Origin: Xylogone sp. PMI_703
Taxonomy: Eukaryota > Ascomycota > Leotiomycetes
Length of the DNA stretch: 64,000 nt
Assembly: GCA_021399445.1 (NCBI GenBank)
Contig: JAJTUQ010000001.1
Span: forward strand, 6,820,001 to 6,884,000
Reading direction: 5' to 3'
A program made the position numbers and the translations under genes. This document shows positions 24,582-43,912 of this stretch, piece after piece (the first letter of the stretch is position 1; every line of letters starts with the position of its first letter). The notes below the pieces were generated by a model. That model was given only the letters and a program-made list of their open reading frames with translations. It was not told where the DNA came from and made no database searches.

Positions 24582-26525
24582 ATGTTCTTCTCTTCGGCTT
24601 TCGCTCTTGCATTGAGCATCTCCCCAGTCTTCTCCCTCCCACATCGACCTACATATGTTGTGCATGAAAAGCGCGAAGCATTACCCCATGCGTGGGAACT
24701 TGTATCCCCCGCAAATTCCTCAACCATTCTCCTTGCGAAAATCGGACTATCACAAGGCAATCTAGATGCTGGTCACGACCACTTGATGGCGGTATCGGAT
24801 CCACGATCCACCGCATATGGACAGCATTGGACCCCTGAGAAAGTGGCCGAGTTCTTCCAGCCTTCAACAGAAACGATTAAATCGGTTCAGACATGGCTGG
24901 TACGTTCCGGAATTGACGAGAAACGTGTAAAGCTATCCAATGGCAAGCACTGGATCTCCTTCAACGCTACAGTGAAAGAATTGGAAGATCTTCTCCAGAC
25001 TAAATATAACGTATACCGTCACCAGTCAGGCCGGAACTATATCGGCAGCGAATCTTACCATCTTCCCACTTCGCTACAACAACACGTTGATTTCGTTACT
25101 CCTACCATTCAGTTTGACGCCCATGCGAAGATTACAACACACACATCAAAACAAGAATCGGTCAGCAAGAGAGATACCAACAACTGTGGTAGCCAGATTA
25201 CCCCAGAGTGCCTTCGTGCAATGTATGGAATTCCCGTTGGGCAGTACAACGATTCCAAGAACTCCTACGGAATCTTGGAATTCGCAGGAAACTCCTACAA
25301 CCAGGATGACCTGAATCTCTTCTTCAAATCGTACTCATCTAACGTCCCTTCCGGCACCGCTCCAATCTATCTACCTATTGATGGTGGATACATGGCTCCA
25401 GGCAAAGATAGTGCAACCTTGGGGGAGTCCAACCTCGATCTCATGTATGCGATGTCTTTGGTCTACCCACAGTCCGTCTCCTTATACGAGACTGGCGACA
25501 ACGACTCCCACCAAGCTACCGAAAACAACTTCCTAGATGCAGTTGATGGATCCTACTGCTCCTATGATGGCGGTGATGACTCAAGTATCGATGCCATTTA
25601 CCCACATGACTCGACCAACGGATACAAGGGAAAGCCAGACTGTGGAAAATACAAGCCAGCAAACGTGATGTAAGTATTGCCTCCAATAGGAAGCCTAAAG
25701 AAATGTAACTAACCAGTTTTCAGCTCTGTTTCATATGGTATGAACGAGGCTAGCCACCCTCCAGCTTACTTCAAGCGCCAATGTTACGAGTACATGAAGC
25801 TTGGTCTCATGGGTGTCACGTAAGTACTTCATACTCTCCACTATCAGTAGTTTGACTTCGTATCTTACTAACATCCGCATAGTATCATGTTCGCATCTGG
25901 TGATAGCGGCGTTGCAGGATTTGGAGGGCAATGCTTGAGCTCTGATGCTAAGAGCGGTGCTTTCAATCCTATCTTTCCTGGCACTTGCCCCTATGTCACA
26001 TCTGTTGGAGGCACTCAGCTCTCACCAAATACACCCGTCGACTCCAAAGAGACCGCTGCAGGTCTCTCTAGTGGTGGTTTCAGCAACATCTTCCCAATTC
26101 CCGACTATCAGAAGGACGCTGTTTCAAACTACTATTCCAAGTACGCTCCATCATACGACAGTTCAGTTTACAACAACACCAAGCAAGTCCGCGGTTTCCC
26201 AGACGTATCGGCCAATGCTGTCAACTATGTCTTTGCCGTTGATGGAGGAATGTACGCTGTTTCAGGCACCAGTGCAGCATCTCCTGTCTTTGGAGCTGTT
26301 GTGACCCTGTTGAACGAAGCACGCATCAGGGCTGGAAAGAATCCCATCGGCTTCCTGAACCCAGTCTTGTACCAACATCCTGAAGTCTTAAACGATATCA
26401 CTTCCGGCAACAACCCAGGTTGCGGCACAGACGGATTCGAGGCCGTTGAGGGCTGGGACCCAGTGACTGGACTTGGAACCCCAAATTATTCCAAGATGGA
26501 AGATCTCTTCTTGAGCCTACCATAA
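24582..26525 (+). CDS. Secreted tripeptidyl peptidase, sedolisin family S53
   Basis: Acid serine-carboxyl peptidase that releases tripeptides from protein outside the cell. Signal peptide MFFSSAFALALSISPVFS. The pro-domain (HAWELVSPANSSTILLAKIG ... VDFVTPTIQF) is full length and ends near the KRDTNNCGSQ cleavage region. The catalytic Glu/Asp pair lies in GESNLDLMYAM, the oxyanion Asp in MFASGDSGVAG, and the Ser in VSGTSAASPVFGA. The calcium-site region (LNDITSGNNPGC, GWDPVTGLGTP) is near the C-terminus. Two short introns, 25671-25723 and 25819-25882, interrupt it. Every catalytic element is present, so it is probably active. Confidence 0.93.
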
Positions 26526-28631: not shown

Positions 28632-29873
28632 TTATACTTCCGGCATCCTAAGGGGTATTGGCTTGTAGCTATCTTCGCTACTGAGTCGAAGTTTAGATTC
28701 CAGCCATTTTGCAAAGCGAATTGAAGGCAGATCAATATATTGCCAATAGATGAAGGCAAGCGCCATCAAAAATGGAGTCAGAATCACCCAGGAAGCTACA
28801 AGCCCTACAGCTAGCGACCCATGAGTAAGATTCGTAAACCAAGCCACCATCCTCCAACCAAATAGCCGCAATGTTGGCTCGTGAATAATATACAGAGAGA
28901 ATGATATATCCCCAAGGAATTGGATTGGCTTGAACGATAGCAGCCGTTGGACCGACGTCAAGTGAATAATGGACCCAAGCAAAAGCAGATTCCCCCAAAC
29001 CATTGTAAGCTTAGAACCAACAAGTCCAAAATAACCATCTTGCTCCACCGGAAGGGAAGTGAAATATAATCCAACCACCATTATTCCGAAAGCTACTGCA
29101 TTAGTTCGAGACTTATTGCGCACCCTGAAAAAGGTTTTGCTCTCCGTATATCTTGCGATAGTTAAACCACCCACAAAGAGCGCTGTATCCCACATATAAA
29201 ATGAGTAAAAATATGCAATTAAGCCCACGGCAGAAGCGTAGAATGCCCAGTCACATAAAGTAAGCAACCCGGCTGCACAAATATATAAAATCATTGAGTC
29301 TCGCATCTCCCAAGGAATAGTATACAGATGTGTGCCATAATTGGAGGGCACAGTGAAAGGTCGAAGCGACATCAGGTGCATCAGACTCCAATATACAAAA
29401 CATAGCCAGTCCCAAGTCTGTTTAAGCAAATTTCCTTGCGTAATGGGAATTGACTCTGCAATTTCTTCGTCATTTAGACCCTTATACAAAAGTCCAGAAT
29501 ATGCCGCAAGCATAACAAAGAATGTTGATGGGAGAACAGGCAGGTACAAGCGCCATGCTCGTCGGAATATGCTTGATGAAAGTGATGTGGTGAATGAGGC
29601 TAGGTCACCGGTGCGAGCGAGCCTAGCTGGTTTGGTGGAAAGGACGAAGCCAGAGAGGGCGAAGAAGAGACCGACCATTTGGAAACCAGAAAAGAAGATG
29701 CGAAGAATAGGGAGCTGGAGAAGAGAAGACGTGGAGATTGAGTGAAATGGGGCGTTGACGGCTGGGGTAAAGGGTAATGCGAGATGGTAGGTATAAACAA
29801 TGAGGGCAGCAAGACCGCGGAGACCAGTCAGATAGTCGGTTGACCGGACGGCTAGCTGGATTGGAGAAGCCAT
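28632..29873 (-). CDS. Membrane acyltransferase, acyltransferase 3 family
   Basis: Single-exon protein of 413 residues, normal for the family, which transfers acyl groups to sugars, lipids or small metabolites. The N-terminus YLTGLRGLAALIVYTYHLAL carries the conserved Arg and His of the family. About ten hydrophobic segments follow (for example MVGLFFALSGFVLS, FGIMVVGLYFTSL and LVASWVILTPFLMALAFIYW). It is next to the UstYa block and could acylate its product, but members are common throughout fungal genomes, so this link is weak. Confidence 0.88.
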   Translation of the reverse strand: MASPIQLAVRSTDYLTGLRGLAALIVYTYHLALPFTPAVNAPFHSISTSSLLQLPILRIFFSGFQMVGLFFALSGFVLSTKPARLARTGDLASFTTSLSSSIFRRAWRLYLPVLPSTFFVMLAAYSGLLYKGLNDEEIAESIPITQGNLLKQTWDWLCFVYWSLMHLMSLRPFTVPSNYGTHLYTIPWEMRDSMILYICAAGLLTLCDWAFYASAVGLIAYFYSFYMWDTALFVGGLTIARYTESKTFFRVRNKSRTNAVAFGIMVVGLYFTSLPVEQDGYFGLVGSKLTMVWGNLLLLGSIIHLTSVQRLLSFKPIQFLGDISFSLYIIHEPTLRLFGWRMVAWFTNLTHGSLAVGLVASWVILTPFLMALAFIYWQYIDLPSIRFAKWLESKLRLSSEDSYKPIPLRMPEV

Positions 29874-30765: not shown

Positions 30766-31783
30766 ATGTCACAATCCAAATACTCTCCGCTCATGTCTGA
30801 CGAAGTCCCCGTCCACTCCGACACAATTTGGGGGGGTCAAATTGGAGACAAGCGACGCTCACGGCCTATTTTACTCCCATTATATATAGCCATTGTTATT
30901 GTTGTATTCATTGTGTTGAGCTTCTTACTCATTAGTCCAAATATCATTCACGGTACCCTATCTGCTGAAGAAATATTACCTCAGTGTAAGTCACCTTTAA
31001 AAAGTCTTTTGCAACTGACACCAACAGATCCTGCAAAAGTTCCATTAGCCCAGGTAGAGTGGGCAAACGACTTCAAGTGGCAAGATACTGGAGATGAAGG
31101 TGACAGAACATGGAATGATCTAATGCCGAGTATAGACAATCCTTTGAACGGACTCATGTGAATCAAAGATTTGGCTTTATCGCATAGTTGGGAATGGCTT
31201 TATCCGTGTACCTAACCCTCGCATGTATGACATTCATCCAAGTGCTCCAATCCTGAATGATAAGGAAGATGCTGAAGAATATGCCATTTCTGCTTTTCAT
31301 CAACTGCACTGCTTGATGAGCTGAGAGAATTTCTCCAGTGTTAGTTTCTTATGGTTGAAGACTTAATCATAATAGCTTCTAGGGTATGTTGAGAGATGTT
31401 CTTATTGCATATGAGCGAGGTGGAGTGTCAAAATTCATGGAAGGAGGCCACCCATATCACTGCCTCGATTACCGTGAGTTATTCATTGTATCTAATCACA
31501 CTGGTTAAAGATCCCTAAATTGGATGTAGTGAGACAGGCAGTGTTGTGTATGGCTGATATAACGCTCGAATATGGTGTGATAGGATGGGATGGAGAGCTG
31601 AACAAAACAGCGTGGCTGTATGGTGGTGGGACTGCAACACATATGTGTCGAGATTGGAACGCCGTGGTTGACTATGCGATTGCTCACAGAACTGGTGATA
31701 AGCGTGATCTTTTGAGTTCTAAAGGATCGGTAGAGTACTATAGTGCAGCTTATAGTATACGTCATCATACCCCCCAGCAGTGA
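30766..31783 (+). CDS. UstYa-family oxidase 1 (DUF3328), damaged splice donor
   Basis: UstYa-type proteins are copper-dependent oxidases that cross-link core peptides in fungal RiPP pathways. A cytosolic tail is followed by one transmembrane helix (LLPLYIAIVIVVFIVLSFLL, about residues 36-55). The lumenal part has GFIRVPNPRMYD, then the first HxxHC motif as FHQLHCL, the second as GHPYHCLDYLRQ, and the C-terminal THMCRDWNAVVDYA. Introns: 42 nt near 30987, 58 nt GTATAG...GCATAG after LMP, one after HCL, and one after LDY. The third should start with GT directly after HCL, as in the three related genes here. It starts AT (31316) and reads into a TGA. Unless an AT-AG intron is tolerated, the protein stops after the first copper motif. 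Confidence 0.85.
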
Positions 31784-31809: not shown

Positions 31810-32772
31810 TTATGCTACCCAGTCTTCCTTGACAGTTTCATTTTTGTCCACACTGTCCGGATCTTGTAGCTTTGGATCCACTTGCAACCCTTCTGCACCG
31901 TGGAGAGCCCACTCCCAGAAGCCTGTCCACTTATGGTCTTCAATCCATTGAATAATGGCATCGTAGTCCCGACACATATGTGTATCGTGGAGTCCATAGT
32001 CTTCGTAAGTCTTAGTTGTCCCAAACATCAAGTCCGGATTACATTGGAAAGATTGACGGAGGTAGTTCAGACAGTGTAATATGTGTCCATCATGTGGGTG
32101 CGATTCGTTTGAAAGGAGTCGTTGTCGTATCCGGTACTACTCGATCAGGTGTATGGTTAGGTAAAGAAGATACGAAACATGCTTATCCTTTGCAGCACTT
32201 ACAAGACAATGAAGATTATGGATGACATCGGTCTGGTAGACCATTTCACCAGGCCTGCCTGGTGTTGGAGCTGAAGGTGGTATACCTTGGGAAGCGGCCC
32301 ATTTAGCATCTAAGGAAATTATCGCAGATTCTGTCATGGCGTTTAGAAGAAAATCTATGAATTTACATGATAGAATAGCAACATCGTCTTACTCGGCATT
32401 AATTCATTCCTCCAAAAGTTGTTCGCGAAGTCAGAATCCTCCGTCCACTTGTTATCATTGTTAAACACCTTCATTACGTTAAACTCCATTAGTTTTCGAA
32501 CTAAAGTATGTGAGTATTAGCATGTGTAAATTTTCTAGTGCTTGCAAAAACTTACGACCATCCATTTCAGGAAGTTTGGGTCTTCTCATTCCCTGAATTA
32601 TATCGTAGACACTCCAGACTAAGAGTAGATTTATTATCTCGAAGATAACGCAAAATAGGATTAACTGTGGCCATTTGATTTGGAATTTGAAGTTCGTACG
32701 AGTGCCCAGGGCTATATTCTCAGGCTCCTCACTGGATATAAGATGTTTTCGCTCTAGGTCACTACCTTCCAT
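31810..32772 (-). CDS. UstYa-family oxidase 2 (DUF3328)
   Basis: Likely cross-linking oxidase of the central cluster. One transmembrane helix (LILFCVIFEIINLLLVW, about residues 37-53) is followed by the lumenal domain. The copper motifs are VIHNLHCL and HILHCLNYLRQSFQC, and the conserved tail reads THMCRDYDAIIQWIEDH. Four exons read through cleanly. The introns are GTAAGT...TTTAG near 32505-32558, a 62-nt intron after LMP ending CCATGACAG, and one directly after HCL (GTAAGTGC...GAGTAG). WAASQGIPPSAPTPGRPGE is typical of the family. It converges on oxidase 1, with stop codons 26 bases apart. No lesion seen. Confidence 0.9.
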
Positions 32773-34210: not shown

Positions 34211-35124
34211 ATGGCTTTAGGCTCTGATCTGAGTCTGTTCTCGTCCAAGTACCATCCCCTTTCACAGGAAGACTCGAAAGGAGAAGATGGCGAGAGGGAG
34301 CAGACTGTATCTATCAGGCAGATGAGATACTTGAGTTTACTCATTCAAATATTTCCATGGATCACATCTCTCCTTTTTGCGGCTCTGTACATTATAGCAG
34401 TATATCAAAACTTACATAGGTCAACAGTGAAATGTTTTGGTTCGTCCTCTGCATCCGCCTGGTGTGTTCCGAATTAACAGCATTAGACAATGACCTGAAC
34501 GCTCCTTTAATTTATGAAGACAGTATACCTCCCTCCCATGTTTGCCTTGTAGCAGTGGGCTGAAAATAGTGTTAGGGACTTACCTATCGGACGCTTACGG
34601 TGATGCATATGACATCTACTCTCCCAATAATCCAAATGCAGATGAAGTATGGATGTCACTACGTATGGACAAGATGACCGCAGTCAGCATAGAAGAATAC
34701 TCTCATATGCTGCCTGAAAGACCGACAGCTCCTTTGTACGGAGGCCAGGAAGGCTACAGTGTACTCTTAGAAGTGTTCCACCAGCTTCATTGTCTAGTGA
34801 GATAATAACCTTTCACTAATCGCTCAGAGATCATCTGAATTAAATGCGTCGCAGGACTCCATAAGACGGGAATATTATACTGGTGGCAACTCAAGTGTGC
34901 TCACCAAAGGATTTTCGGAGCCTGGTGGTCATGGGGCTCACTGTTTCAGCTACCTTCTCCAAACAATACTGTGTCATGGAGATGTAGGAATCATGACAAC
35001 GAGATGGCATGAGAGAATGCAAGCCTTTCACGCTAACTTCAACATTACAAAGACATGTCGAAATTTTGATATAATTCGGGAATGGGCGTTAGCGAGGCGG
35101 CCAAAGTTCGAAGCTCCTGAATAA
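34211..35124 (+). CDS. UstYa-family oxidase 3 (DUF3328)
   Basis: Membrane-anchored oxidase candidate. The N-terminal tail is followed by a helix (SLLIQIFPWITSLLFAALYI, about residues 42-61). The first HxxHC is VFHQLHCL. The second is GHGAHCFSYLLQTILC, and the tail is ITKTCRNFDIIREWALARR. My model has three exons. A 91-nt intron (34462-34552) joins SSSASA to SGLKIVLGTY, which keeps the frame open. An intron GTGAGA...GTCGCAG follows HCL directly, as in the paralogues. The second motif has Phe-Ser-Tyr where others have Leu/Ile-Asp/Asn-Tyr. It stands divergent to oxidase 2 and converges on the precursor gene. Confidence 0.88.
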
Positions 35125-35738: not shown

Positions 35739-35976
35739 TTAACAGCCGGTTTGATAATAGGCATCGGCCTCAGCATTAGGGTTTGGTTCGCGCTTGATAC
35801 AGCCATCAACTCCAGGATTGGCCTCAGCGTTAGCCTCACGGGCAGCGATGTCCGCTGTAGATATACCGTGTTAACTCTGTAGAAGAAATAGACGTATAGA
35901 GTATTGACTTACCAGTTGGCAGGCTGATGACGCCGAGAACAAAGCTGAGAGCGAGGAAGAGTTTGGAAAACCGCAT
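35739..35976 (-). CDS. Putative RiPP precursor peptide, asperipin-like
   Basis: A 59-residue product from two exons (35913-35976 and 35739-35854), joined over a canonical 58-nt intron GTAAGT...CTACAG. Residues 1-22 are a signal peptide (MRFSKLFLALSFVLGVISL). Two imperfect units follow, each beginning R-E and ending G-C: R-EANAEANP-GVDGC-I, then the Kex2 site KR, then EPNPNAEADA-YYQTGC and stop. After each Arg the residues form X-A/X-P dipeptides, like the Ste13 spacer of alpha-factor, so trimming would release GVDGCI and YYQTGC. YYQTGC resembles the published asperipin-2a hexapeptide FYYTGY, and UstYa enzymes act on Tyr side chains. Four UstYa genes, a methyltransferase and an FAD oxidase lie around it. 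The gene structure is well supported. The RiPP role is inference; a Kex2-processed secreted peptide of another kind is the main alternative. Confidence 0.72.
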
Positions 35977-36836: not shown

Positions 36837-37955
36837 ATGGAACATCAGAATCAATCTTTCGATCTATACAAAGATGATGTTAACGAATCTTTACATAGTC
36901 TTTTAGACAAACCTCAACTTTCTAGCAAGAGGAATCATCTTTTCAGTTTTGTTTCCAATCGCCATGGGCATTTCATATTCGTCCAAGTCACTTTGATTAT
37001 CTTGTATACCGCGGTTTTCTTCCTCTTTGTTGATCGACGGGATGCTGCAAACGGACTTGTGTATTGTAGGACACTTGATTCATGACACAGATATTTTGAT
37101 GTTACTATTTCTGACCATACACTCAGCTCCGGCCCAAAATGTTGTCGAATATGAACGCGTCCGCTTCAACGCTACTCTGGTAATTGACAGTCCGTATAAT
37201 GGTGAGCCAGGTCCAGAAGTAGACAAGGCCTGGAGTGACCTTTTACAATGTAAGATTTCCATTTGAGGAGATTATCTTTGAAATACAGCGGTTACTAATT
37301 GAATAGATATGAATATTGCGGTTCCGAAATCAGATCTCGACAAGATTGGGGCAGATTCAATTGGTGTTCCAGGTACCGACAAGTATATCGCTGGACTCAG
37401 TGTCTATCATGAGTTGCATTGTCTAGTAAGGAAGCTCCAAGAACTCGCTTAGATCCATTTTCTCACAACTATCACAGAAGCGTCTTCGACAATATACATG
37501 GCAGGAGTACTATCATCCAAATACCACTGATGAAGATAAACGACTTAATAGACTGCATACCGGTATGTTTCTGCTCACTCTAATGCTATCCGCGTGAATA
37601 TAATGACTGCCTATGCTGATCACTACAAGATCACTGCATCGATGTTCTCCGACAAGCAATCCTATGCCATGCTGACATTTCACTCTTTACGTTGGAATGG
37701 TCCGAAGCGGAGCCAATGCCGCGCGCCGACTTCTCGCACGAGCATATCTGCAAAGACTGGCGGCGTATCTTTGAATGGGCCGGTGAGAGGAGTATCCCTG
37801 AAGACAAGATGAAAAACTTGCAACATCCTTTGCATGGTACGTCTCTGGAGCAGGAAACCGGTATGGATGCTAACTAAGTAGGGCCTGCATTTCCAGATGG
37901 CAAAGGTTCTGCTCTTGGGGCTAGTGAAGATCATAGCGCAAAGGTACACGAGTGA
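36837..37955 (+). CDS. UstYa-family oxidase 4 (DUF3328)
   Basis: The most typical UstYa protein of the set. A cytosolic tail is followed by one helix (FIFVQVTLIILYTAVFFLFV, about residues 46-65). The spliced lumenal domain runs YSPAQNVVEYERV, EVDKAWSDLLQ, first copper motif VYHELHCL, then RLRQYTWQEYY, second motif HTDHCIDVLRQAILCHADIS, and the tail HEHICKDWRRIFEWAGE with final GPAFPDGKG. Six exons are needed: intron 1 is GTAGGA...ACTCAG at the Y-SPA junction, one follows LLQ, one is directly after HCL (GTAAGG), one lies inside HTD-HC, and the last is GTACGT...AAGTAG. No lesion seen. It is the nearest oxidase to the precursor with an intact HTDHC, so the best candidate for the core-modifying step. 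Confidence 0.92.
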
Positions 37956-38760: not shown

Positions 38761-39643
38761 ATGCCCATCCTGGTGATTCATTTTCCGGAAGTTCAAGCCA
38801 GTTCATATCACATAGATCAATGGAAAGCCTTTTGCTCAGGAAATGAATTCAATATCTCGTTTCGAGACTTGGCATTTGCTGAATGGTATAAAGAGTTAGG
38901 TAAGCTGATAGAATTTAATGATTTGGCAGTTGCTCTTGACCAGCTCATGTGAAGACCAGGACATCATTTTTCCGATTATGAGGCTACCACGGCAGTGCCA
39001 GAGCTCGTTTCCACCGCTAGTGGCATCGTCTTTGAACTCGGCCCAGGGACCGGGAATCAACTGCCTCGCTATACAGTTGATAATATTGAAAGGATCTACG
39101 GGATTGAGCCTAATCCTGCCTTCATTAACGTACTGCATTCTAGGATTCAGGAGACAAGCCTGAAAGATAAGTATACGATGATCATAGGTGGCCTCGAAAA
39201 TGAAAACCTCCTAAAAGAGTATGGAATTGTCACTGATAGCATGGATTGCATCGTAAGTATGCAAGTTCTATGTTCAGTAAAAAATGGGCCGAAGGCTGTG
39301 GAGCATCTGTGGAAATTACTGAAGCCTGGAGGGACGATCATATTCTGGGAGCATGGAGATAGCCACGAGTGGTTGACAAGGAAGGTGCAAAGTATGAGAG
39401 CATCATCTTTTACGTGTACCTGCAACTAATACACTATCAACAGAATTCTGGAACCTAGTGTGGCCATTTGCAATTGGTGGGTGCCAGCTGGGTCGGCCGA
39501 TTATCGATTTGCTGCTGAAAAATGGTGATTGGGAGGTACTAGAGCTAGAAACGGAAGGTGAACCATGGTCTTTGATGCCGAGAGTCTGGGGCAGACTTCG
39601 AAAAGTGGCACACGGTCAAGGAACGAGAAGTGTAGTGGCTTAA
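38761..39643 (+). CDS. SAM-dependent class I methyltransferase
   Basis: Rossmann-fold methyltransferase of the METTL7/methyltransferase-11 group. Motif I is VFELGPGTGNQLPRY, followed by the acidic IYGIEPNPAF. Motifs II and III are MDCIVSMQVLCSV and LLKPGGTIIFWEHG. The last exon (FWNLVWPFAIGGCQLGRPII) gives the usual C-terminal part. Introns: a 60-nt one GTAAGC...GACCAG joining WYKELG to HHFSDYEA, and one near 39389-39443. The N-terminal exon from ATG 38761 is short and lacks the membrane helix common in relatives, so the true start may be upstream. Methyltransferases are regular members of dikaritin clusters (UstM, PhomM are known examples), so modification of the peptide product is a reasonable guess. 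Confidence 0.82.
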
Positions 39644-41445: not shown

Positions 41446-43100
41446 ATGCTGCCCCTCGTGAATGTAGTGGTATTTTTCACGGCCTTTTCTTTTGTCAAAG
41501 GGCAATTGGCCTGTGACAGTGCAGTAAATCTTCCTATCTTCTATGATAACTCTCAACTCATTGGACTGCCAGTGTAACACCCTCTCAAAAATCCTACCAG
41601 ACGCAGTATTTTCTGGCACGGCAGCCAGATTCGACTTGTGGTCAAACTTTCAAGCAGAAGTGGTGCCTCAGTGTAGGGTGGAACCTCAGAATGCATCTGA
41701 TGTAGCAAAAATTCTCGCTGTAGCCAAAGTTCACTGGTGTCATTTCGCCGTCCTTGCTGGAGGGACATCCCCATTTCGCTATGCATCAAATGCTGATGGT
41801 GGAATCACCATTGATATGCGACGAATGAAATCAGTGCAGATTGTCGATGATCAATTGTTGCATGTAAAAGTTGGCGCAGGCGCAATTTGGGCCGATGTTT
41901 ATCGAGAGTTGGACCCGCGAAATATGTCAGCAACTGGGACACGAAATAGTTTGACGGGAGTCACTGGTTCTATACTTGGAGGTATGTTCTCCTTTTTGGA
42001 TCAGTATTTCGTACTTACTGAACCTACTAGGCGGAATATCTTTCTTCTCACAGCGTTTCGGATGGTCTTGTGATACCGTTGTTGCATTTGAAGCCGTGCT
42101 TGCTAATGGGACCGTTGTAAATGCCACCCAATCTTCTCACCCTGACTTATTCTTTGCGTTGCGAGGGGGTGGCAATAATTTTGCAATTGTTACGAGTGTC
42201 ATAATTGAAGCTTTTAGAGATCCTCCTTCCTGGTATACTTTTCAACTATGGGATCTTGGTATCCTAGGTGTTGTGTTTCGCAGACTGCAAGAATATACTG
42301 CCGAAATGCCCATCGAAGTATGGCAGCTTGCTACAACATTGGGATGGCACGTTCCAACACAGCAGTTTGTCATTTCAGAACGAATCGTTGCATCTGAACT
42401 TCCTAACTTGCCCGGAAGTTTACACTACCCAGGAGGCGAATTGGGCGGCAGGATATCAATGCCTCGCGAAACATATTTGTATCAGCGATCAACACTGCAT
42501 ATGTCGCAGAAGATGGATTATATGAATCTTCCTGGCTTCTATAATTACTTTGGTTCTGTGACTGTGAAGAGTGATGCCAGAGTACACCTAGCTTTGGCTG
42601 ATATCTTTTGTGAAGAAGTGTTTTCAATTCAGAAAGCTGCCGGTCTGCAGGTTTACGTCGTGTACAATCCTCTCACGGTGAAGACTTTACAGAAAATGCA
42701 GACTCGTGGGGGAAATTCTTTAGGAATCAAAGCTGCGGATGGACCTCTTACAAGTAAGTCAATCCAAAGACGGCAAAAAAGAGGCACTTCTAATCCTATT
42801 CTAGTCGTAAACATCAATTTACACTGGAGTTCCACATCGGATACCGCGCTGATGACAAACTTTATTCGTAGATTGACCACTCGTTTTCGGCAACGAGCAC
42901 AGGAACTTGGAATGCATCATCCGTACCTATTTCAAAATCATGCTTTTGAGGAACAAGATGTCTTCACAGGCTACGGAAATGTGAGTTTAGCAAAACTCAA
43001 GCGAATTAGGAGGCAGGTAGATCCAGAGGGTATATTTCAGACGCTACAACCGGGCTTTTTCAAATTGGGAGATCATATAGATACTGAGCCACAGGTTTAA
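41446..43100 (+). CDS. Secreted FAD-linked oxidoreductase, berberine-bridge type
   Basis: Second BBE-type oxidase of the window, different from the one at 4.3-6.0 kb. It has a signal peptide (MLPLVNVVVFFTAFSFVKGQ). The FAD domain is CRVEPQNASDVAKILAVAK, then LAGGTSPFRYASNADGGITI, VGAGAIWADVY, GWSCDTVVAFEAVLANG and SHPDLFFALRGGGNNFAIVT. The C-terminal BBE part ends YGNVSLAKLKRIRRQVDPEG. Introns: 41527-41573, 41981-42031 and 42754-42805. The position of the covalent His (GGH) holds Thr. It lies within the UstYa block, 80 bases from the stop of oxidase 5, with which it converges. Being directed to the secretory route, it could meet a secreted peptide substrate. Confidence 0.9.
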
Positions 43101-43180: not shown

Positions 43181-43912
43181 CTAATTTTGTTTCTTCTGTA
43201 AATACTCGCAACTTGGATATTTCGTGAATATCTTAGTCATTATATAATTTGGATCCGTTCCCTCCTCCATCGCAACTTCTGTGCAGTGCTTGGTATGATT
43301 GTAGTTACCAATATATCCGTCGAGAGGAAGGCTAGCTAAGACAGCTCTGTGCAATTTTCGCATCATGTAGGCACAATGCGCTTTGTGAAATTCCCACGTA
43401 ACGAAAAGATGCTCATGGTCGCCGGCAAACACTTCATCCATTGGTACTTGAGATTCGACGCCATCAGACAGCGGTTGCCTATAATATATCCATTTCTTTC
43501 GAGCTAGAAAATCTTCGACAAGTTCCTCATCGAAACAGAGTTCTGGTAACCACGAGAAAGACATGATATCAAAGCGGCACCCAAGTGTTCGAGCTTCAGC
43601 TGGCGAAGAACCGCATGGAGAATTGGATGGAGGTGAAGAATCGGTGAGGTCTATGTATACTTTTGGAGTATAGGAGATTGGTAGAGGACGACTCTTCGCA
43701 CCAGTACCCGCGACAGCCTTGACAATGGAAATGATTAAAGGAATTAAGACAGCCGTCGAGATAGCTATAAATCCAACTCGAATCGCAATATATAACCGCC
43801 TATTCGTAAGCCGGGTTTTGGCAAAGCCCCCGTTCCGTAAATCTTCTTTACTGTACTGAAATCGTTGCTCATCTTCCGGTATAGAGGTGTTAATATATTC
43901 TGGCTCATCCAT
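43181..43912 (-). CDS. Divergent UstYa-like protein 5
   Basis: Single exon, 243 residues, unlike the intron-rich paralogues. A helix at about residues 41-65 (LYIAIRVGFIAISTAVLIPL) is followed by a lumenal domain with CGSSPAEARTLGCRFDIMSFSW and WLPELCFDEELVEDFL. Then come WEFHKAHCAYMMRKLHRAV and NYNHTKHCTEVAME. Both HxxHC copper motifs of UstYa proteins are present (HKAHC, HTKHC), but only 23 residues apart, and the sequence around them differs. I take it as a distant UstYa relative; similar fungal proteins are usually annotated as hypothetical. Its role in the cluster is inferred from position and motifs. Confidence 0.8.
   Translation of the reverse strand: MDEPEYINTSIPEDEQRFQYSKEDLRNGGFAKTRLTNRRLYIAIRVGFIAISTAVLIPLIISIVKAVAGTGAKSRPLPISYTPKVYIDLTDSSPPSNSPCGSSPAEARTLGCRFDIMSFSWLPELCFDEELVEDFLARKKWIYYRQPLSDGVESQVPMDEVFAGDHEHLFVTWEFHKAHCAYMMRKLHRAVLASLPLDGYIGNYNHTKHCTEVAMEEGTDPNYIMTKIFTKYPSCEYLQKKQN

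What the first reader, a model, noticed from the sequence alone, without database searches (positions are those of the whole stretch)
35739..35976. Candidate new RiPP precursor with asperipin-like hexapeptide core
Seen: a two-exon, 59-residue secreted peptide with a KR site, an X-P/X-A spacer and the C-terminal hexapeptide YYQTGC. Known: dikaritin RiPPs (ustiloxin, phomopsin, asperipin-2a) come from secreted, Kex2-cut precursors whose Tyr-containing cores are cyclised by UstYa proteins, and the asperipin-2a core is FYYTGY. Inferred: YYQTGC is the core of an undescribed cyclic peptide. Its Cys in place of the last Tyr could allow a different cross-link. The gene is so short that automatic annotation may miss it.
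Basis: partly seen in the sequence, partly recalled or inferred. Interest (0 to 1): 0.92.

Follow-up and report, generated by a model that had tools for sequence, protein, structure and literature searches.

The report
Candidate single-core fungal cyclic-peptide precursor gene
A tiny, apparently unannotated fungal gene beside several peptide-cross-linking (UstYa) enzyme genes looks like the precursor of a short cyclic peptide; unlike the precursors beside several other such enzyme genes in the same genome it is not repetitive, which may explain why such precursors are overlooked.

Summary
In detail: on the minus strand, 35976-35739 encodes a 59-residue secreted peptide in two exons (intron 35912-35855) with one KR site, five X-P/X-A dipeptides and C-terminal YYQTGC. 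It is very unlikely to be chance: codon use is coding-like and no comparable model arose in 60 shuffles. It lies between UstYa genes. No NRPS, PKS or tyrosinase match lies in the window. The genome is Xylogone sp. PMI_703. In it, 8 of 16 fetched UstYa neighbourhoods carry classic repeat-type Kex2 precursors; the window carries none. Best reading (0.6): this is the cluster's RiPP precursor, with one Tyr-containing core rather than tandem repeats, cut by Kex2 and trimmed by a Ste13-type peptidase to YYQTGC, then oxidised by UstYa enzymes. 'Asperipin-like' rests on 3 of 6 matching positions and is not membership. No homologue of the precursor was found and cluster conservation could not be shown, so product and function remain inference. 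Novelty: a repeat-less variant of a known kind that repeat-based surveys would miss.

The parts
35913..35976 (-). precursor exon 1: start codon and signal peptide (MRFSKLFLALSFVLGVISLPT)
35855..35912 (-). predicted 58-nt phase-1 intron, GTAAGT...CTACAG
   Evidence: no RNA evidence
35739..35854 (-). precursor exon 2 with stop codon
35814..35837 (-). first X-A/X-P spacer EANAEANP after a single Arg
   Evidence: sequence; DNA similarity to second spacer
35796..35813 (-). GVDGCI, candidate second peptide (no aromatic residue)
   Evidence: sequence; inference
35790..35795 (-). KR, predicted Kex2 site
   Evidence: sequence
35760..35789 (-). second spacer EPNPNAEADA, five X-P/X-A dipeptides (Ste13 signature)
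   Evidence: sequence
35742..35759 (-). YYQTGC, candidate core peptide
   Evidence: sequence
36837..37955 (+). UstYa gene D, annotated as F5884DRAFT_827610; HELHC...HTDHC
34211..35124 (+). UstYa gene C; HQLHC...HGAHC
31810..32772 (-). UstYa gene B; HNLHC...HILHC
30766..31783 (+). UstYa gene A; HQLHC and, by eye, a second HxxHC, but no GT donor visible after the first; possibly broken
43181..43912 (-). divergent UstYa-like protein, HKAHC...HTKHC, no Pfam match
   Evidence: tblastn E 0.42
38953..39643 (+). methyltransferase (start approximate)
41543..43100 (+). FAD-binding (PF01565) oxidoreductase, in two overlapping frames (start approximate)
28632..29873 (-). acyltransferase 3 (PF01757); cluster membership uncertain
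24582..26525 (+). S53 (pro-kumamolisin) peptidase about 9 kb away; cluster membership uncertain

Best explanation
The gene is the precursor of a UstYa-type RiPP whose only aromatic core is YYQTGC. Steps: secretion by the signal peptide (motif shown); Kex2 cleavage after KR (site shown, cleavage inferred); removal of EP-NP-NA-EA-DA two residues at a time by a Ste13-type dipeptidyl aminopeptidase (spacer shown, trimming inferred), leaving Tyr exactly at the N-terminus; oxidative side-chain cross-linking by the neighbouring UstYa proteins, most likely through one or both Tyr, with the terminal Cys as a possible partner (inferred); perhaps methylation and further oxidation by the cluster methyltransferase and FAD enzyme (inferred). 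It carries at most two diverged units instead of tandem repeats.
For: Real gene. Setting: between UstYa genes C and D, 0.6-0.9 kb away; A, B, C and D match PF11807 over its cut-off, and B, C, D show both HxxHC motifs, the copper-binding motif named in PMC12435403 (abstract and passages). No Condensation, ketoacyl-synthase or tyrosinase match in the window, so no NRPS/PKS backbone competes there. No repeat-type precursor in the window. In the same genome 8 of 16 fetched UstYa neighbourhoods have Kex2 repeat precursors, so UstYa plus Kex2 precursor is common locally. One of them (L021, QYRNADW x6) uses the same KR-EAEAEP-type spacer. A second single-core candidate, also with a phase-1 intron after the signal peptide, lies beside UstYa genes at L034. 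The genome gives one match each to a Kex2-type and a DPPIV/Ste13-type domain.
Against: No homologue of the precursor in the protein database. Neighbour genes C and D gave no named genome in common among their hits (6 and 23 proteins), so cluster conservation outside this fungus is unproven. No transcript, no product. The dikaritin precursors described in the papers seen are repeated. PMC6339444 (passages) says the Ste13 signature in Ascomycota is generally dedicated to alpha pheromones. 8 of the 16 fetched neighbourhoods lack a repeat precursor; of those only L034 gave a credible single-core candidate (plus one doubtful model in L033), and a 17th neighbourhood, L053, gave neither. Gene A may be broken, so the cluster could be decaying.
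Confidence: 0.6

Rival explanations
1. A Kex2/Ste13-processed linear peptide (pheromone-like signal or small effector) that is not a UstYa substrate; the UstYa genes act on something else and the adjacency is incidental.
For: The Ste13 spacer is the alpha-pheromone hallmark (PMC6339444, passages); DUF3328 proteins also serve nonribosomal peptide and polyketide pathways (PMC12048977 section 22).
Against: Yeast mating factors (0 of 227) and putative fungal pheromones (3 of 216) are hardly ever accompanied by DUF3328 genes (PMC7329392 section 8). A 6-residue product is shorter than the 9-24 of alpha pheromones and has no WC...G..C pattern. No NRPS/PKS match in the window. The other secreted precursor found by the spacer pattern (L021) is also beside UstYa genes.
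Confidence: 0.2
2. A vestige: a former repeat-type precursor reduced to two diverged units, in a cluster that is decaying and no longer makes a product.
For: The two spacers are similar in DNA, 15 of 17 bases, reached by 7 of 2000 codon shuffles; the first unit has no Tyr; UstYa gene A has no visible donor where its relatives have one.
Against: The precursor keeps signal peptide, intron, KR, coding-like codon use and promoter. Gene D is intact and 73% identical over 91% to a Hyaloscypha protein. At protein level the two units are not significantly similar (252 of 2000 shuffles).
Confidence: 0.13
3. Chance: not a gene.
For: No homologue, no paralogue, no annotated protein found.
Against:: several gene features coincide and shuffles hardly ever reproduce them.
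Confidence: 0.03

Closest known systems
Dikaritins (ustiloxin B, phomopsin A; UstA/PhomA precursors)
   Same: signal peptide, Kex2 KR site, Tyr-containing core, several UstYa/DUF3328 genes and a methyltransferase nearby
   Different: UstA has 16 and PhomA 8 repeats of the core (PMC6514808 passages), here at most two diverged units; no tyrosinase or S41 peptidase match in the window; Ste13-type spacer; core ends in Cys
Asperipin-2a (aprA/aprY/aprR/aprT)
   Same: hexapeptide core with Tyr, Thr, Gly (FYYTGY against YYQTGC, 3 of 6 positions); no tyrosinase
   Different: asperipin cluster has one UstYa homologue, an isoflavone-type reductase and a transporter; here four or five UstYa-type genes; no such reductase or transporter among the 29 window ORFs scanned with Pfam (not all ORFs)
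Kex2-processed repeat proteins (KEPs)
   Same: signal peptide and dibasic-flanked short peptide
   Different: KEP definition needs at least 3 tandem repeats of at least 8 aa (PMC7329392 section 13)
Ascomycete alpha-pheromone precursors
   Same: KR followed by X-A/X-P dipeptides; can have as few as one peptide (PMC6339444 passages)
   Different: core length and sequence; beside UstYa genes
Repeat-less UstY clusters of lichen fungi (clans R1, R2, PMC12048977)
   Same: UstY genes with signal-peptide/Kex2-site genes that lack repeats; the authors raise a single core peptide as a possibility (passages and section 22)
   Different: the parts seen name no core; here a specific core, spacer and gene model are given
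Predicted Trichoderma reesei RiPP precursor, 109 aa (PMC7099791)
   Same: proposed fungal RiPP precursor with one core and a dibasic site (KK) found once (passages)
   Different: predicted by another route; the passages seen tie it to no UstYa enzyme; no Ste13-type spacer mentioned there
Single Kex2-flanked peptide on a Coprinopsis cinerea glycoside-hydrolase protein (PMC9769878)
   Same: one short non-repeated peptide flanked by Kex2 sites (passages)
   Different: large enzyme-bearing precursor in a mushroom; no UstYa link in the passages seen

Membership tests
Dikaritin (five-gene definition of Ding et al. as quoted in PMC12048977) | precursor with N-terminal leader and repeated core motifs | tested here: not met
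   signal peptide present, but no repeat-type precursor in the window; only a 17-base spacer similarity
Dikaritin (five-gene definition) | tyrosinase | tested here: not met
   13 PF00264 matches in the genome, none in the window
Dikaritin (five-gene definition) | methyltransferase | tested here: met
Dikaritin (five-gene definition) | multiple DUF3328 proteins | tested here: met
   four genes matching PF11807, plus one divergent UstYa-like
Dikaritin (five-gene definition) | transporter or peptidase | tested here: inconclusive
   S53 peptidase about 9 kb away; no S41 match in the window; MFS search scored only 9 of 993 candidates
Dikaritin (later definition by DUF3328 protein, as quoted in PMC12048977) | DUF3328 protein as class-defining enzyme | tested here: met
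   that it acts on this precursor is not tested
Dikaritin | ether or other side-chain cross-link in the product | not testable with these tools
   needs LC-MS/NMR
KEP | at least 3 tandem repeats of at least 8 aa between Kex2 sites | tested here: not met
   sequence
Asperipin-2a | FYYTGY core | tested here: not met
   YYQTGC, 3 of 6 positions
Asperipin-2a | four-gene cluster with reductase and transporter | tested here: inconclusive
   none among 29 ORFs scanned with Pfam, not all ORFs of the window; transporter search truncated
Ascomycete alpha pheromone | Ste13 X-A/X-P signature after KR | tested here: met
   five dipeptides
Ascomycete alpha pheromone | peptide of 9-24 residues with pheromone motif | tested here: not met
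   6 residues, no WC...G..C; no Pfam match up to E 0.1

The most novel reading that the evidence does not exclude
UstYa clusters without tandem repeats, a reported puzzle in lichen fungi, are served by a class of tiny single-core precursors that borrow the alpha-pheromone trimming system (Kex2 then Ste13) to set an exact N-terminal Tyr. In this case the terminal Cys takes part in a UstYa-made link between two core residues, such as Tyr-Cys; I saw no such link in the passages read (ustiloxin's sulfur-bearing Tyr arises, as I recall, from free cysteine and other enzymes).
Probability: 0.2. Interest if true: 0.75.

Novelty: new variant of a known kind. Interest (0 to 1): 0.52.

Why it matters
Two published surveys find fungal Kex2-type precursors by their repeats, at least 3 in each (PMC7329392 section 13; PMC6339444 passages); one manual study asked for one or more repeats (PMC9632046 passages). 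A precursor with one core is invisible to the former, and a short two-exon gene is easily missed by annotation. If this gene makes a UstYa product, orphan UstYa clusters become assignable with a simple search rule: signal-peptide exon, phase-1 intron, one KR, dipeptide spacer, C-terminal core. The core gives exact masses to look for, so the idea is directly testable.

Tried and rejected
Homologues of the precursor: none. Microsynteny by locus tags: the named hits of UstYa C (6 proteins) and UstYa D (23 proteins) share no genome; this neither supports nor excludes a conserved cluster. Gene C of this genome itself was not among the hits, so it seems unannotated or modelled very differently.

Alpha-pheromone gene of this genome: a WC...G..C pattern gave 134 matches against 79 for the reversed control (not all listed). 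Two were fetched and read and do not look like pheromone genes; not pursued, so the genome's own pheromone gene was not identified.

Shared promoter word ATTGGGGAT: 3 copies in the window, all upstream of cluster or possible cluster genes, none in 184.6 kb of other UstYa loci; but 3 of 100 shuffles reach 3, the word was picked after looking at many, and a looser form (WTTGGGGATT, one mismatch) is not enriched: 14 matches, 10.0 expected, 11 of 100 shuffles reach it. Suggestive only.

Adjacency statistics: of 7 genome loci matching KR plus three (D/E/N/K)-(A/P) (9 matches, 5 in the reversed control), two lie in short secreted precursors and both are within 5 kb of UstYa genes, a zone of 1.3% of the genome. 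The window was chosen for its UstYa genes, so only the other locus is independent (about 0.013).

Sensitivity of the strict scan: it recovered only 1 of the 8 repeat precursors, because it requires an intron with a strong donor; absence elsewhere therefore means little. One search, with a different scan, gave a 99-aa model at L034 where one search gives 73 aa, so that gene's intron is uncertain. In one search the separate 'exon2' score was computed in the wrong frame (my slip) and is not used.

Solved structures: nothing for UstYa by sequence (best E 0.11). Structure prediction was not run; it would not bear on the precursor.

Full report
The feature. The protein is a signal peptide followed by ADIAAR, EANAEANP, GVDGCI, KR, EPNPNAEADA and YYQTGC. 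Two spacers made only of X-A or X-P dipeptides each precede a short peptide that ends in or near Gly-Cys. The two spacers are similar in DNA (15 of 17 bases, reached by 7 of 2000 codon shuffles) but not significantly as protein (252 of 2000). So this is a one- or two-unit precursor, and only the last unit contains Tyr.

Is it a gene? Codon use over its 59 codons scores 0.301 bits per codon; 94.5% of 236 coding pieces (from the training ORFs, the candidate not among them) score below and 0.04% of 2262 intergenic pieces above. In window 26501-48000 it is the only model with a signal peptide, KR or RR and at least three dipeptides, and 60 Markov shuffles gave none. A scan that knows nothing of dipeptides (signal-peptide exon up to 110 nt, strong donor, branch site, dibasic site, coding-like codons) found four candidates in 248.6 kb: this one, a four-repeat precursor (L035), a 73-aa single-core candidate (L034), and a doubtful one (L033). 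Shuffles of the same sequence gave one in 1.49 Mb, and 25 other loci of the genome (77 kb, 8 of them single-UstYa loci) none. The promoter has a TATA box at -119. Without splicing the frame gives 46 residues and no KR, so RNA evidence for the intron is essential.

Where it is. A protein search with neighbouring UstYa D returned F5884DRAFT_827610 of Xylogone sp. PMI_703 on a contig of 9,083,828 bases, the length of contig C1 that holds the window, so the genome is that fungus. The same database returned no protein sharing three 5-residue words with the precursor, so it appears unannotated at its own size (about 33-103 aa were eligible).

The cluster. Four genes match PF11807 (UstYa). B, C and D show both HxxHC motifs. 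A has the first, and by eye a second, but no visible donor after the first, and may be broken. A fifth, divergent protein at 43181-43912 has HKAHC and HTKHC but no Pfam match. The HxxHC pair binds two copper ions in CctR (PMC12435403, abstract and passages). Also present are a methyltransferase, an FAD oxidoreductase and an acyltransferase. Whole-genome searches put no Condensation, ketoacyl-synthase, tyrosinase or S41 peptidase match in the window. The MFS search was too truncated to use (9 of 993 scored).

The genome as a yardstick. The genome has 108 UstYa exon matches, which a rough gap rule groups into 53 loci, 21 of them with two or more genes; the rule undercounts, giving 3 genes in the window where 4 are seen. 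I fetched 20 loci making 16 neighbourhoods and later one more, L053, out of these. Eight of the 16 hold a Kex2-type repeat protein that begins, or can be spliced to begin, with a signal peptide: QYRNADW, TTGDKSPKYEDYEV, SPDLGYYVYF, DTDNVASYQW, DEDGIRAGDF, NPLIASGAYGTY, DEPLTAAYNTVY, and a two-motif protein in L036 (for L021, L031 and L036 the splice is uncertain). Neither the window nor L053 holds one. So UstYa plus Kex2 precursor is common in this genome, and the window fits it except for the repeats.

How it most likely works. Shown: the signal peptide, KR and dipeptide spacer motifs, intact UstYa motifs, and one match each to a Kex2-type and a DPPIV/Ste13-type domain elsewhere in the genome. 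Inferred from established pathways: Kex2 cuts after KR, Ste13 removes X-A/X-P dipeptides (PMC6339444 and PMC9769878, passages), and UstYa proteins cyclise the core at Tyr (PMC6514808 and PMC9233826, passages). Ste13 trimming would leave Tyr at the N-terminus. In ustiloxins and phomopsins the N-terminal Tyr is the cross-linked residue; in asperipin-2a ether links join Tyr side chains to beta-carbons. Which atoms join here, and whether Cys takes part, cannot be told from sequence.

Rivals. A linear pheromone-like peptide is the main rival, because in Ascomycota the Ste13 signature is generally dedicated to alpha pheromones (PMC6339444). Against it, 0 of 227 yeast mating factors and 3 of 216 fungal pheromones have DUF3328 genes nearby (PMC7329392 section 8), the peptide is too short, and the other secreted precursor found by the spacer pattern (L021) is also beside UstYa genes. 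A decaying cluster is a real possibility given gene A and the Tyr-less first unit.

Known or new. By the five-gene dikaritin definition it fails on repeats and tyrosinase; by the later definition (DUF3328 as class-defining) it passes; both are quoted in PMC12048977 (passages). It is not a KEP by definition (PMC7329392 section 13). The lichen paper states that two clans of UstY clusters lack repeated precursors and that a single core peptide is one possible reason (section 22). Near precedents for non-repeated precursors are a predicted 109-aa Trichoderma precursor (PMC7099791, passages) and a Kex2-flanked single peptide in Coprinopsis (PMC9769878, passages); neither is tied to UstYa in what I saw. 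I know of no described single-core UstYa precursor; the searches behind that statement were made, in an open-licence library only, with the listed papers seen mostly as titles or passages. YYQTGC occurs in none of that library's texts.

Limits. The adjacency argument is weak statistically because the window was picked for its UstYa genes; one independent locus gives about 0.013. My strict scan misses 7 of the 8 repeat precursors. No fungal genome collection was at hand for conservation, and named homologues of UstYa C and D did not co-occur.

Noticed in passing
L034 2953-2554 minus (G000:C19:4853553-4853952): Second single-core candidate about 0.6 kb from UstYa genes: 73 aa, signal peptide, phase-1 178-nt intron, one KR, then EDDADVEALWGGGAWTYGAPR; one search gave another splice of 99 aa.
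   Followed up: partly
L021, L023, L029, L031, L032, L035, L036, L039: Eight repeat-type Kex2 precursors beside UstYa genes in the same genome, with distinct cores, most containing Tyr; this fungus looks rich in UstYa genes (about 83 by a rough gap rule).
   Followed up: partly
L021 2743-2334 minus: Core QYRNADW with Ste13-type spacers ends in ADW, like the AADW-ending Ste13-type peptides of mushrooms described in PMC9769878 (passages), but here about 4 kb from a UstYa gene.
   Followed up: no
window 30766-31783: UstYa gene A has HxxHC motifs but no GT donor where its relatives have one; possibly broken.
   Followed up: partly
window 30326, 36140, 41243: The word ATTGGGGAT sits upstream of three cluster or possible cluster genes and nowhere in 184.6 kb of other UstYa loci; post hoc, and a looser form is not enriched.
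   Followed up: partly
L036, L038 (G000:C21) and UstYa at G000:C1:2,605,000 and 3,446,000: These UstYa genes lie roughly 1-17 kb from NRPS or PKS domains, so part of the UstYa set may serve nonribosomal or polyketide products.
   Followed up: no
window 34211-35124: UstYa gene C was not found among proteins of its own genome in the database although gene D was; annotation of this cluster looks incomplete.
   Followed up: no
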